Assembly (NCBI GenBank): GCA_009861545.1
Contig: VXME01000003.1
Location: forward strand, 1 to 64,000
Direction of reading: 5' to 3'
Source of the DNA: Acidobacteriota bacterium
GTDB taxonomy: Bacteria > Acidobacteriota > Vicinamibacteria > Vicinamibacterales > UBA8438
DNA length: 64,000 nt
Below, in pieces: positions 52,068 through 56,114 of this stretch (its first letter is position 1; each line of letters starts with the position of its first letter). The notes beneath the pieces are model-generated. The model did no database searches and was not told the DNA's origin. It saw only the letters and a program-made list of their open reading frames with translations. The position numbers and the translations under genes were made by a program.

Positions 52068-53105
52068 CTACCGCGCCGCTTCCGCCGCCGCGGCGTCCTC
52101 GGCGCGCGAGCCGGTCAGCATGTTGAACAGCCCGTAGTTCCCCTCGTGACAGGCGTACTCGAACACCGGGCCCGCGGAACGCGCCATCGGCAGCGACCCG
52201 CTCCAGGGGCGCGTCCACGTGTTCGGATCGGTCACCGTGAACTCGTAGCCGAGCGTGTCGGGTCCGACGCGCGTGAAGCGCTCGATGACGTGCAGCTCCT
52301 CGCTCAGGTTCGCGTTGAAGTTGCGAATGAAGGCGTGGCGGTTGAAGTGCGTCGTCTCGACCACGAGCGTGTCGCCCTCCCAGTGGCCGCGCGAGTCGCC
52401 CGCGAACTGCCGGATGGCCGGGTCGATGTGCGGGCGTCCGTCGAGAAGGATGAAGCGCACGTCGTGGATGTGCTCCTGCAGAATCGCCACGAAATCAGGG
52501 TTCTGCACGATCTGGTAGTGGTTGTTGTAGGCGGTGGGGAACGACGGGATGCCCCGGTACCACAGGCAGCGGTCGCCGCCGTCCAACTGCGTGTAGGTGT
52601 CGGTGGGCAGCCGCCCGCCGCGCACGTCGGCCAGCCGCGCCGCCTCGTCCGACGCCAGCCATGCAGCGACCTCCGGGGTCGGTTCCGGCAGCCGGCCGTT
52701 CGGCGGGTCGGTGACGATCGACGTGCGCCGGGTCGGCAGTACCGTCGTGCCGCGCTCCATCCAGAAGTTGTTGTAGGAGCCGGGGGCGCCGTCGACGCCG
52801 CGGTCGACGTTGCCGTTCGGGTCGGCCGCGGTGCGGAGCGCGGGCCGGGCGGCCAGATCGGCGTTGCGGTCCGCCGCTTCCTGCTCGATGCGCGCTGCCT
52901 CTTCCTCGGTCAGGAATTCCTGGTCGGCGAGCGACGCCGGCCGCTGGAAGGGGGTCAGCGTGGAGTTGTTCCATATGCCCTGCAGGTCGGGATCGCCCCA
53001 GGGCGTCCGCGGGGACCCTGTGTCCGACTGCGCGGCGGTCAGGCCGGGGGCCAGCGCCACACACGCGATCACGGCGAGTATCACGGCCAGGCAGCGGTTG
53101 CTCAT
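52068..53105 (-). CDS. Uncharacterised secreted family protein, paralogue D
   Basis: A 345-residue exported protein: signal peptide 1-25 (AVIACVALAPGLTAAQ). Signature: GDPDLQGIWNNSTLTPFQRP, NNFWMERG, RRTSIVTDPPNGR, DRCLWYRGIPSFPTAYNN, QNPDFVAILQEHIHDVRF, GDSRGHWEGDTLVVET and FEYACHEGNYGLFN. It is the most divergent of the four: WDFRTI is replaced by WNNSTL and GFNAGPP by YRGIPS. AAGGAGG precedes ATG 53105. It is divergent from the ABC importer run. Function unknown. Confidence 0.8.
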   Translation of the reverse strand: MSNRCLAVILAVIACVALAPGLTAAQSDTGSPRTPWGDPDLQGIWNNSTLTPFQRPASLADQEFLTEEEAARIEQEAADRNADLAARPALRTAADPNGNVDRGVDGAPGSYNNFWMERGTTVLPTRRTSIVTDPPNGRLPEPTPEVAAWLASDEAARLADVRGGRLPTDTYTQLDGGDRCLWYRGIPSFPTAYNNHYQIVQNPDFVAILQEHIHDVRFILLDGRPHIDPAIRQFAGDSRGHWEGDTLVVETTHFNRHAFIRNFNANLSEELHVIERFTRVGPDTLGYEFTVTDPNTWTRPWSGSLPMARSAGPVFEYACHEGNYGLFNMLTGSRAEDAAAAEAAR

Positions 53106-53293
53106 CGGATCCTCCTTCGGTCTTCACGAATCTTGACACAGGACGGGCGCGGGCGTGCCCCCGGCGTCGTCGACGGCTGCGGGGCCGGGTCGTAGCATCG
53201 GCTCGACCGCGGTCGTGGTACCGTCGTGTCCTCGGGCCGCAGCAGCCGCGCCGCATGATCGTGGCCGTGGCGCCGCGTGGTAAGGTCCCCGCC

Positions 53294-54400
53294 ATGGGCT
53301 GCTGCGAGGCGACCAATCCGAACCTGCTGGGGGCGGTTACCCGGTCGGGACGGAAGTCGGAGCCCGCGGGGGAGCACTGGCCCGCGCCGGGCGCCGCCTG
53401 GGACCGCCGCACCACGCTCAAGAGCCTGGCGGGCGCCGCCGGCGTCATCGCCGTCAGCGGCTGCGCCCGGGAGCTCGACGACGGGATGACCGGCGTCCGC
53501 CTCGCCTTCTGCGGCCAGCTTCTGTGCGTCGTCCCGTATGAAGTCTCGCGAGTGCGGGGGCACTTCGCCGAGCAGGGGCTGGCCGTCGAGTTGGTCTACA
53601 CCCGCGGCGGCAACGCGGCGATGCAGGCGCTGGTGGGCGGCGCGGTCGATTATGCGGGCACCTCGTTCGACGTCGCGCTGCAGGCGTCCGCCAACGGGGC
53701 GCCGATCCGCCGCGTGGCGTCCACCGGGCGGTTGCCGCTGTTCGCGCTGGCAACGGCTCCGGCGCAGGCGGGCGTCATCGACTCGGTGGCGGCGCTCGAA
53801 GGCCGGACGGTCGGGATTTCCGCCCTGGGGAACGCCGATCACGCCCTGCTGCTGTATCTGCTGGATCAGGCCGGCGCCGATGTAAACGCCGTGCAGTTCG
53901 CGGCCATCGGCACGAACGTGTTCGACGCCCTGCGAATCGGTCAGGTCGCCGCCGCAATGCTGCAGGAGCCGGCGTTGTCGCTGATCGTCGAGGCGGGCGG
54001 GCGCGAGCTGGTCAACTTCATGGAAATAGACGAGGCGCGGCGTCATCTCGGCGGTCCCTATGCGTTCATGGGGGTCTCGGTGCGGGCGGCCGAGCGCGAC
54101 GGACGTCGGCCCGAGATACGCAGGCTGGCCGCCGGCCTCGCCGCGGGCCTGGTCGATACGCGGACCCTGCCGCCGGCCGAAGTTGTCGCCGCGCTGCCGG
54201 AGGCGCTCGTCGCGGGCGGGGACATCGACCGCCTCGAGAGAGTCATCGAGCGCTACCGCCAGTCGCTGTACCCCGAGCGCGTCGACGTGGACATCGAGGC
54301 GGCTGCGCGGGTGATGCGCGCCCAGGAGGTCGCGGGCCTGCTCGAGCCGGGACAGGTGGATCTGGATACCCTGCTCGACGCCGGCGCGCTCGCCGGATAG
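53294..54400 (+). CDS. NMT1/SsuA-type ABC substrate-binding lipoprotein
   Basis: A 368-residue periplasmic binding protein. The N-terminus combines a twin-arginine motif (Arg38-Arg39 in WDRRTTLKSLAGAAG) with a lipobox (VSGC, Cys57). The body is the NMT1/THI5-like fold: VPYEVSRVRGHFAEQGLAVELV, GNAAMQALVGGAVDYAGTSFDVAL, LEGRTVGISALGNADHALL. Members bind alkanesulfonates, taurine, nitrate or pyrimidine precursors of thiamine; the ligand is not predictable. ATG at 53294 follows AAGG; an ATG 13 codons upstream has no site. First gene of a five-to-six-gene run. Confidence 0.83.
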   Translation: MGCCEATNPNLLGAVTRSGRKSEPAGEHWPAPGAAWDRRTTLKSLAGAAGVIAVSGCARELDDGMTGVRLAFCGQLLCVVPYEVSRVRGHFAEQGLAVELVYTRGGNAAMQALVGGAVDYAGTSFDVALQASANGAPIRRVASTGRLPLFALATAPAQAGVIDSVAALEGRTVGISALGNADHALLLYLLDQAGADVNAVQFAAIGTNVFDALRIGQVAAAMLQEPALSLIVEAGGRELVNFMEIDEARRHLGGPYAFMGVSVRAAERDGRRPEIRRLAAGLAAGLVDTRTLPPAEVVAALPEALVAGGDIDRLERVIERYRQSLYPERVDVDIEAAARVMRAQEVAGLLEPGQVDLDTLLDAGALAG

Positions 54401-55183
54401 GTGCGCACGCGGACGACCATGCTGCGGGTCAAGGGGCTGGCGGTCGGTTTCGGCGGCGAGCCGGTGCTCGACGGCATCGACCTCGACGTGGCGGCGGGGG
54501 AGTTCGCCACCCTCATCGGTCCCTCCGGCTCCGGCAAGACGAGCATCCTGCGGGTCGTGACCGGTCTGCTGGAGCCGTCGCGCGGCACCGTCGATCTCGA
54601 CGTCGGGGTGCGCGACGTCGGCTTCCTGTTCCAGGACGACGCGCTGCTGCCGTGGCGCACGGCACGGCAGAACGTGGCGCTGGGGCTGCGCATCCGGGAG
54701 GTCGCGCCGGACGCGGCCGACGAGCAGGCCGAGCACTGGCTGCAAGTGCTGGGGCTGGCCGGCTACGGCGACCGCTATCCGGGACAGCTCTCCGGCGGCC
54801 AGCGCAAGCGGGTGGCCATCGCCCAGGTGCTGGCGCTGCGGCCCCGGCTGCTGCTGATGGACGAGCCGTTCGCGGCTCTGGACGCCATCGTCCGGACGCG
54901 CATCACGCAAGAGCTCCTGGAGTGGGTCGAACGCGAGCGGCTCACCGTGCTGCTCGTGACCCACGACCTCGAAGAGGCGATCAGCGCTTCCGACGTCGTG
55001 CACGTGCTGGGGCAGGGGCCGCGCGCCGCGATCCGCGCCACTCACCGCGTCGGGATTCCGCGGCCGCGGCGCGTGCTCGAAGCGCGGGGGCACCCGGCCT
55101 TCGGTCCACTCCTGCGGCGGCTGTGGGACGAGCTGGCCGCGGAACGGTCGCAGGCACGGTCCAAGGAGGCGGTCACCCCATGA
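54401..55183 (+). CDS. ABC importer ATP-binding protein (SsuB/TauB-like)
   Basis: A 260-residue ABC ATPase. Walker A GPSGSGKT at 40-47, Q-loop FQDDALLPW near 76, signature LSGGQRKR near 130, Walker B LLLMDEPF near 152 and switch His in LVTHDLEEA near 187. The FQ..LLPW form is typical of nitrate/sulfonate/taurine-type importers. GTG at 54401 follows the binding protein's stop with no gap; ATG at 54419 is possible. Its stop overlaps a small ORF by four bases. Confidence 0.92.
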   Translation: MRTRTTMLRVKGLAVGFGGEPVLDGIDLDVAAGEFATLIGPSGSGKTSILRVVTGLLEPSRGTVDLDVGVRDVGFLFQDDALLPWRTARQNVALGLRIREVAPDAADEQAEHWLQVLGLAGYGDRYPGQLSGGQRKRVAIAQVLALRPRLLLMDEPFAALDAIVRTRITQELLEWVERERLTVLLVTHDLEEAISASDVVHVLGQGPRAAIRATHRVGIPRPRRVLEARGHPAFGPLLRRLWDELAAERSQARSKEAVTP

Positions 55184-55356
55184 AGGGCGGGTGCCGGTCT
55201 CCAATAGTGGGCTGTCATGCAGCCGACTTCCCGTCGGCCGACGCCAACCCTGCGGCTGCCGGGGAACGGGGCGGCGGTACGGACAGGTTCGTGCAGGACA
55301 TTCCGGCAGTGGTGGATCCACGCCGTCGCGCTGCCGAGCGGCAGGTGACGTCATGA
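55180..55356 (+). CDS. Possible 58-residue small protein coupled between ABC genes
   Basis: An ORF starting MKGGCRSPIVGCHAADFP and ending ERQVTS. Its ATG overlaps the stop of the ATPase gene (ATGA), its stop overlaps the ATG of the permease gene (ATGA), and AAGGAGG lies 11 bases upstream. This exact double coupling argues for translation. Against it, third-position GC is clearly lower than in neighbours and there is no recognisable domain; two cysteines and a His (C5, C12, H13) are the only notable residues. It may carry ribosomes through the gap rather than make a functional protein. Confidence 0.45.
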   Translation: MKGGCRSPIVGCHAADFPSADANPAAAGERGGGTDRFVQDIPAVVDPRRRAAERQVTS

Positions 55357-56114
55357 AGCGCTGGCACGCGTCTCCGCCCGTGCGCCGCAGCGTGGCGCTG
55401 CTGCTCCTGCTGGCCGTGTGGGAGACGGCGTCCCGTGGCGGCGCGCTGGACCCGTTCTATGCGCCCCCGCCGTCGGCCGTCGCGGAAGTCATGTTCACCC
55501 TGGCCGCCGGCGGCGACCTGTGGCCGCACCTGGGAGCGACGGCAACCGCCGCGTTCGCCGGCCTGCTCGTCGGCCTCGTGCTCGGTATCGCGCTCGGCTT
55601 CGCCGCCGCGCTGGCGCCGCCCGTCGCCGACCTGCTCGAGCCGGTGATGATCCTGCTCAACGCCATCCCCCGCGTCATCCTGGCGCCGCTGTTCGTCATC
55701 TGGCTCGGCATCGGCCTCGCCTCGAAGCTGGCGCTCGCCACCATCCTCGTCGCCGTGCTCATCTTCTTCGCGGTCTACAACGGCGTCCGAGAGGTGGACC
55801 GGCGGCTGGTGGAGCGAGTCCGCACGCTGGGCGGCGGACGCCGGACCCTGGTGCGCGAGGTGTACGTCCCGTCGGTCACGAGCTGGGTGATGGGCAGCTT
55901 CAAGGTCGCCGTCGGGTTCGCATTCACCGGCGCCGTGGTGGGCGAGTTCGTCGCGTCCAGCCGCGGGCTGGGCTACCTGCTGCAGTTCGCGCAGAGCACC
56001 TACAACGCCGCGCTGACCATCGCCCTGATTGTCATCATCATGGGGATCGTCCTGCTGCTGTTCGCCTGCGCCGAACGGATCGAGCGGCGCCTGCTGCGCT
56101 GGCGCTATCTGTGA
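55353..56114 (+). CDS. ABC importer permease (SsuC/TauC-like)
   Basis: A 253-residue inner-membrane protein with about six helices (ATATAAFAGLLVGLVLGIALGFAAAL split over helices one and two; FVIWLGIGLASKLALATILVAVLIFF; TIALIVIIMGIVLLLFA). The EAA-like loop that contacts the ATPase is RTLGGGRRTLVREVYVP. FYAPPPSAVAEV near the start is typical of the sulfonate/nitrate importer class. It completes a binding protein-ATPase-permease importer with the two genes upstream. The antiporter gene follows after 14 bases. Confidence 0.9.
   Translation: MKRWHASPPVRRSVALLLLLAVWETASRGGALDPFYAPPPSAVAEVMFTLAAGGDLWPHLGATATAAFAGLLVGLVLGIALGFAAALAPPVADLLEPVMILLNAIPRVILAPLFVIWLGIGLASKLALATILVAVLIFFAVYNGVREVDRRLVERVRTLGGGRRTLVREVYVPSVTSWVMGSFKVAVGFAFTGAVVGEFVASSRGLGYLLQFAQSTYNAALTIALIVIIMGIVLLLFACAERIERRLLRWRYL

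What the first reader, a model, noticed from the sequence alone, without database searches (positions are those of the whole stretch)
55180..55356. 58-codon ORF with ATGA overlaps at both ends
It fills the only gap in an ABC importer operon and is stop-start coupled to both neighbours. Low third-position GC for this genome makes it either a foreign or relaxed sequence or a translational bridge.
Basis: seen in the sequence. Interest (0 to 1): 0.5.

Follow-up and report, generated by a model that had tools for sequence, protein, structure and literature searches.

The report
Relay mini-gene inside transporter operon
A short, probably meaningless reading frame sits between two transporter genes that directly overlap in most of the related bacteria examined, and it may survive because it hands ribosomes from one gene to the next; this is a small example of a known kind of coupling rather than a new system.

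Summary
In detail: ORF 55180-55356 has 58 codons, and ATGA overlaps join it to the ATPase stop and the permease start. The architecture alone is at chance level: 16 of 268 gaps in 876 kb of this genome hold such a bridge ORF, 15.1 expected.

Relatives add interest. In 27 of 39 distinct junctions the ATPase and permease overlap directly by 4 nt; four carry a gap ORF, each ATGA-open frame-ATGA. Three are in the window's genus. The fourth, in another genus, has an exact 33-nt junction repeat. The ORF's first bases match the permease start of congener G003 (17/19 nt, 0 of 2000 shuffles). The frame is open in 3 of 3 readable genus members, and G000 and G001 differ in length only by two 3-nt indels. 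Four control bridge ORFs were not kept in relatives, though only two are clean controls. The peptide looks non-coding and weakly constrained.

Best reading: a junction duplication separated two coupled genes and the frame now relays ribosomes. Chance persistence is the main rival.

The parts
53255..54400 (+). substrate-binding protein of the importer, NMT1/SsuA-like
   Evidence: Pfam NMT1 5.4e-19; NCBIfam SsuA_fam below its cut-off
54401..55183 (+). ABC ATPase, upstream partner; its stop lies in the first ATGA
   Evidence: Pfam ABC_tran 2.8e-29; sequence
55163..55172 (+). Shine-Dalgarno-like AAGGAGGCGG in the ATPase tail, 7 nt before the ORF start
55180..55183 (+). first ATGA: ATPase stop and ORF start; the position where the permease starts in 27 of 39 examined junctions
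55180..55356 (+). 58-codon bridge ORF
55180..55202 (+). stretch resembling the permease start (ATGA plus 19 nt)
   Evidence: 17 of 19 nt identical to the G003 permease start, 0 of 2000 shuffles; 15 of 19 to G021, 6 of 2000; not significant against the window's own permease start, 841 of 2000
55339..55348 (+). Shine-Dalgarno-like CGGCAGGTGA inside the ORF tail, 4 nt before the permease ATG
   Evidence: duplex -10.0 kcal/mol
55353..55356 (+). second ATGA: permease start and ORF stop
55353..56114 (+). permease of the importer, TauC/SsuC-like
   Evidence: Pfam BPD_transp_1 8.6e-23; NCBIfam TauC and SsuC below their cut-offs

Best explanation
The ATPase and permease were ancestrally joined by a 4-nt ATGA overlap, so ribosomes ending the ATPase could restart directly on the permease. 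In an ancestor of this genus the junction was enlarged, leaving a permease-like start at the old site and the real permease start 173 nt downstream (68 nt in G003). Ribosomes would now restart on the old site, translate a short peptide without protein function, and restart again at the second ATGA on the permease. Selection keeps the frame (no stops, fitting length) but hardly the amino acids. Shown: the anatomy, the direct overlap in most relatives examined, the repeated start, an open frame in three species, and a junction duplication in G006. Inferred: that translation occurs, that the relay is needed, that the frame is selected, that the gap arose once in this genus, and that duplication rather than another insertion made it.
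For: Of 39 distinct ATPase-permease junctions, 27 have the direct 4-nt overlap and 4 have a gap ORF, each ATGA-open-ATGA; of the 8 others, 3 have 1-nt overlaps. The ORF's first bases match the G003 permease start: 17/19 nt, 0 of 2000 shuffles. G006 has an exact 33-nt junction repeat at a distance of 74 nt and groups with its own genus, 100/99, apart from the window's genus. G000-G001 insert identity is 0.84 per column with indels of 3 and 3; 23 other spacers have median 0.49, and in those above 70% ungapped identity 28 of 151 indels are multiples of 3. Four control bridge ORFs (the longest four of the 15 others found) are not present as bridges in the relatives read, with the reservations given below. 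Composition is not coding-like and dN/dS is 0.53, against 0.09 (ATPase) and 0.23 (permease), so the frame rather than the peptide would be what is kept. A published test found that about 20 nt of spacing nearly abolishes coupling in six gene pairs (abstract of PMC10666635), which would make a relay useful.
Against: Bridge ORFs occur at the chance rate in this genome (16 found, 15.1 expected). Only three species could be read. G000-G003 differ by 105 nt only as a net sum; most of the single alignment gaps are not multiples of three. No stop would arise by chance about 65% of the time. Two of 23 other spacers are more identical than the insert. Of the four controls, one proved to be part of a longer gene and one lacks its downstream gene in the relatives, so two are clean. 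The permease has its own good Shine-Dalgarno match and may start independently. The start repeat is not significant within G000 or G001 themselves (841 and 1237 of 2000), and the rest of the insert has no demonstrated source. No expression data were available.
Confidence: 0.55

Rival explanations
1. Neutral spacer: the gap is an insertion or duplication whose frame is open by chance in a GC-rich genome; the permease starts on its own Shine-Dalgarno.
For: Chance rate of bridge ORFs; 45% of focal-gap shuffles open; good own Shine-Dalgarno; amino-acid change close to neutral, P 0.08-0.13; non-coding composition.
Against: High identity and only 3-nt indels against G001; frame open in 3 of 3 readable genus members, while control bridge ORFs were not kept (two clean controls).
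Confidence: 0.3
2. The ORF encodes a functional small protein of the importer.
For: Open in three species; 79% protein identity between G000 and G001; slightly fewer amino-acid changes than neutral.
Against: No Pfam, NCBIfam or PHROGs match; non-coding composition; only 23 codons with little similarity in G003; single-sequence model pLDDT 59.7.
Confidence: 0.07
3. A mobile MIRU-like element inserted at the ATGA, duplicating it.
For: Same architecture as described for MIRUs (PMC12548453 section 11).
Against: No further strong copy in 28 family genomes apart from G001's orthologue, though that search missed the diverged G003 version and scored 29 of 126 candidates in G000; the repeat at the two ends reaches beyond ATGA into the permease start.
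Confidence: 0.05
4. The gap is an N-terminal extension of the permease, starting at GTG 55191.
For: That frame is open in the window.
Against: It has an in-frame stop in G001's gap, and directly overlapping relatives begin at the short N-terminus.
Confidence: 0.02

Closest known systems
MIRU (mycobacterial interspersed repetitive unit) ORFs at coupled junctions
   Same: A short ORF at a start codon, coupled to the gene behind it with -4 nt spacing, thought to let an insertion be tolerated (PMC12548453 section 11; the 1997 source paper is not held)
   Different: MIRUs are described as repetitive and apparently mobile; this insert was found at one locus per genome as far as searched, and carries a stretch resembling the neighbouring gene's own start
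Short coupled upstream ORFs and engineered bicistronic designs
   Same: A short ORF that delivers a ribosome to the next start (PMC12548453 section 11). That engineered designs place a Shine-Dalgarno inside the short ORF is recalled, not taken from a call; here such a match is present
   Different: Here the ORF lies between two genes and is itself coupled at its own start
ATGA-overlapping gene pairs coupled by termination-reinitiation
   Same: The two overlaps and the direct ATPase-permease junction of relatives (PMC6728339, start of abstract in the listing; PMC10666635 abstract)
   Different: Two overlaps in series joined by a frame without detectable protein family

Membership tests
[quoted passage not shown]
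   ATGA at both ends; feature from PMC12548453; coupling itself not measured
MIRU | repetitive sequence | tested here: not met
   best further matches in G000 are 20-nt stretches, E 0.006; only 29 of 126 first-look candidates in G000 were scored, and the diverged G003 version was missed
MIRU | sequence similarity to mycobacterial MIRUs | not tested
   no MIRU sequence was fetched
MIRU | mobility | not testable with these tools
   no strain series
termination-reinitiation coupled junction | overlapping stop and start codons | tested here: met
   in relatives 27 of 39 junctions, plus 3 with 1-nt overlaps
termination-reinitiation coupled junction | downstream translation depends on upstream translation | not testable with these tools
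   needs reporters
functional small protein gene | purifying selection on amino acids | tested here: inconclusive
   dN/dS 0.53 for G000-G001; 12 changed codons against about 15 expected, P 0.08-0.13
functional small protein gene | coding-like composition | tested here: not met
   hexamer score -0.10 per codon; third-position GC 0.71

The most novel reading that the evidence does not exclude
Duplication of a stop-start overlap automatically creates a relay ORF when its length is 2 mod 3 and the frame is open, and selection then preserves the frame but not the peptide. Coupled operon junctions would thereby tolerate insertions, and some short intercalated ORFs would be genes whose only task is ribosome delivery.
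Probability: 0.38. Interest if true: 0.55.

Novelty: new variant of a known kind. Interest (0 to 1): 0.36.

Why it matters
If true, it gives a testable natural case in which a reading frame is selected for being translated rather than for its protein. It would show how overlapping operon genes can be pulled apart in evolution without losing coupling, and would warn against annotating such ORFs as small proteins.

Tried and rejected
Foreign or repeated element: a 177-nt DNA search of 28 family genomes found only the window and G001 with strong matches; the next best was E 7.7e-4 over 41 nt. Small protein family: no hits and a poor single-sequence model. RNA structure: fold z-score -0.92, and the predicted local fold before the permease start differs between species. 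Source of the insert body: compared with ATPase tail, permease head, binding protein and antiporter by DNA and by protein profile. Scattered low shuffle counts (1 of 300, 11 of 400, 6 of 500) were not collinear or rested partly on the already known head, and the profile test was negative. Start-repeat tests: nine made; four gave 6 or fewer of 2000 (G000 and G001 against G003 and G021), G003 against itself 27, and four were not significant. Tail-repeat tests: seven made; only G006 was significant (0 of 2000). Permease N-terminal extension: stop in G001. Literature: one search returned nothing; some searches gave coupling papers, MIRU mentions and unrelated papers.

Rows dropped: the seven distant permease loci L024-L030 were not put through the junction table. 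Of the 61 loci given to (L020, L095, L098, L099, L100) had no adjacent ATPase upstream; of the remaining 56, 17 were duplicates, leaving 39. One of the 39, L090, did not resolve and is counted under 'other'. The 42 rows of the Shine-Dalgarno table include duplicates. Controls: 4 of the 15 other bridge ORFs, the four longest.

Full report
WHAT IS THERE. The window belongs to a 6.35-Mb, 174-contig genome, with about 65-74% GC around the locus. The closest matches of the permease in genome contigs are MAGs titled Vicinamibacterales or Acidobacteria. Positions 53255-56114 hold a binding protein (NMT1), an ABC ATPase and a permease. NCBIfam places them near taurine, sulfonate, nitrate and other importers, with all listed scores below the curated cut-offs, so the substrate is open. 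Between ATPase and permease lies the reported ORF, 55180-55356, with ATGA overlaps at both ends. Its third-position GC is 0.71 against 0.92 and 0.94 in the neighbours, and a hexamer model trained on 29 long ORFs of the contig scores it as non-coding.

IS IT MORE THAN CHANCE? As an architecture, no. In 875,902 bases of this genome (the window's contig and 40 stretches), a simple gene caller of my own gave 455 co-directional pairs: 81 with a direct 4-nt overlap, 6 with 1 nt, and 268 gaps of 20-500 nt without direct overlap. Sixteen of the 268 held a bridge ORF, with 15.1 expected from shuffled gaps. Given ATGA at both ends, 2273 of 5000 shuffles of this gap are open.

RELATIVES. The permease was found in 49 of 100 related genomes and 19 of 28 family genomes, the window's own included; a scan of genome contigs gave 38 loci. 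Of 61 loci put through the junction table, 56 had both genes adjacent and 39 of these were distinct. Of the 39, 27 overlap directly by 4 nt in the permease frame, 4 have a gap ORF and 8 are other. Three of the 8 (L079, L083, L093) can start with a 1-nt overlap, going by the start positions; L021, L023, L090, L091 and L094 do not show either overlap in the permease frame. The directly overlapping loci include records titled Betaproteobacteria, Deltaproteobacteria and Elioraea, so the overlap is probably old. The four gap ORFs are G000 (the window), G001 and G003 of the same genus, and G006 of another genus. In each, an ATGA-started frame runs open to a second ATGA at the permease (58, 58, 23 and 25 codons). 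The fourth genus member, G002, is cut off by a contig end inside the permease and has no close ATPase match.

HOW THE GAP AROSE. In G006 the ATGA and its surroundings are an exact 33-nt repeat at a distance of 74, so the junction itself was copied, although the 40 nt after the first ATGA show no significant match to its permease start (1166 of 2000). G006 groups with its own genus (100/99), where two species have the direct overlap, so this is best seen as a separate event. The tree does not resolve the window's genus from G021 and one other genus, so a single origin within the genus is inferred. In the window's genus the trace of duplication is fainter. The 19 nt after the first ATGA match the G003 permease start at 17 positions in both G000 and G001 (0 of 2000 shuffles each) and the G021 start at 15 (6 of 2000 and 1 of 2000). 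The matches to the own, changed permease starts are not significant (841 and 1237 of 2000); G003 against itself gives 27 of 2000. The rest of the insert has no demonstrated source. The G003 insert shares its 3' part with G001 (1 of 3000 shuffles) but not significantly with G000 (402 of 3000). So a repeated start is supported, and a full tandem duplication is inferred.

IS THE FRAME KEPT? G000 and G001 inserts are 84% identical per column with two indels of 3 nt each. The 23 other syntenic spacers between the same genomes have a median of 0.49; two of them are more identical than the insert (0.86 and 0.91). In spacers of over 70% ungapped identity, 28 of 151 indels are multiples of 3. At that rate, two of two would occur about 3% of the time. 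G003 is shorter by 105 nt net, but most of its single alignment gaps are not multiples of 3, so that counts only as a one-in-three event. Under random substitution a stop would appear in 33-37% of trials. As a control, the four longest of the 15 other bridge ORFs of G000 were followed. One is part of a longer gene in G003 and so is no spacer. One (three relatives) ends at other stops, with no downstream match found. One is gone in G001 and G003 by a changed upstream stop and stops early in G002. One stops early in G001 and is replaced by a direct overlap in G003. None is kept as a bridge, but only the last two are clean controls. The evidence for frame selection is thus moderate and rests on three species.

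IS THE PEPTIDE KEPT? G000-G001 dN/dS is 0.53, against 0.09 for the ATPase and 0.23 for the permease; with G003 it is 0.75 (G000) and 0.48 (G001) over 22 codons. Twelve codons change amino acid against about 15 expected, P 0.08-0.13. There are no family matches. The single-sequence model has pLDDT 59.7. A protein function is unlikely but not excluded.

MECHANISM. An AAGGAGG-type site in the ATPase tail (-10.6 kcal/mol) now precedes the ORF start. A second site (-10.0) in the ORF tail precedes the permease; the median of 42 relatives' rows, duplicates included, is -5.85. A relay of two restarts is the simplest reading that uses both overlaps. It fits the finding that about 20 nt of spacing nearly abolishes coupling in six tested pairs (PMC10666635, abstract only). 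The permease's own good site means that independent initiation remains possible.

KNOWN KINDS. A 2025 review describes MIRUs as repetitive elements that insert at start codons so that their ORF is coupled at -4 nt, and short ORFs that deliver ribosomes, used in biotechnology (PMC12548453, passages and section 11 read). This case works like these. It did not meet the repetitive feature of MIRUs as far as searched, so it is not filed as one. In the searches made I saw no description of a junction duplication making such a relay; apart from the passages and the abstract named, those papers were seen only as listings.

VERDICT. It is a small variant of a known coupling device, with a clear experiment to decide it.

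Noticed in passing
52068-53105 (-): A 345-aa protein, with a signal-peptide-like start by eye, without Pfam match at E 1 or NCBIfam match at E 0.01. DNA from another locus (L171), whose G003 counterpart has a similar N-terminal region by eye, matches this gene; 47-49 matches per genus genome are counted for that query, so it may belong to a large unnamed paralogous family.
   Followed up: partly
L182:10971-11545: In G000 this reads as a gap plus a gene, but G003 has a single 191-aa frame from the same GTGA overlap, so the G000 gene looks frameshifted or misassembled.
   Followed up: partly
L171:4688-4808: Another junction with a direct ATGA overlap in G003 but about 125 nt (G000) and 196 nt (G001) between the upstream overlap and the downstream start; there the bridge frame is not kept in G001.
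   Followed up: partly
L014 and L016, ATPase 3' end: The ATPase C-terminal tail in G006's genus is expanded, in L014 by repeat-like stretches (SPTADGEAPAG and similar), suggesting that this junction is prone to duplication.
   Followed up: no
L011, permease start: The permease frame starts at a GTGA overlap but is about 16 residues longer than in most relatives (269 aa against about 253): another way of absorbing extra junction DNA while keeping the overlap.
   Followed up: no
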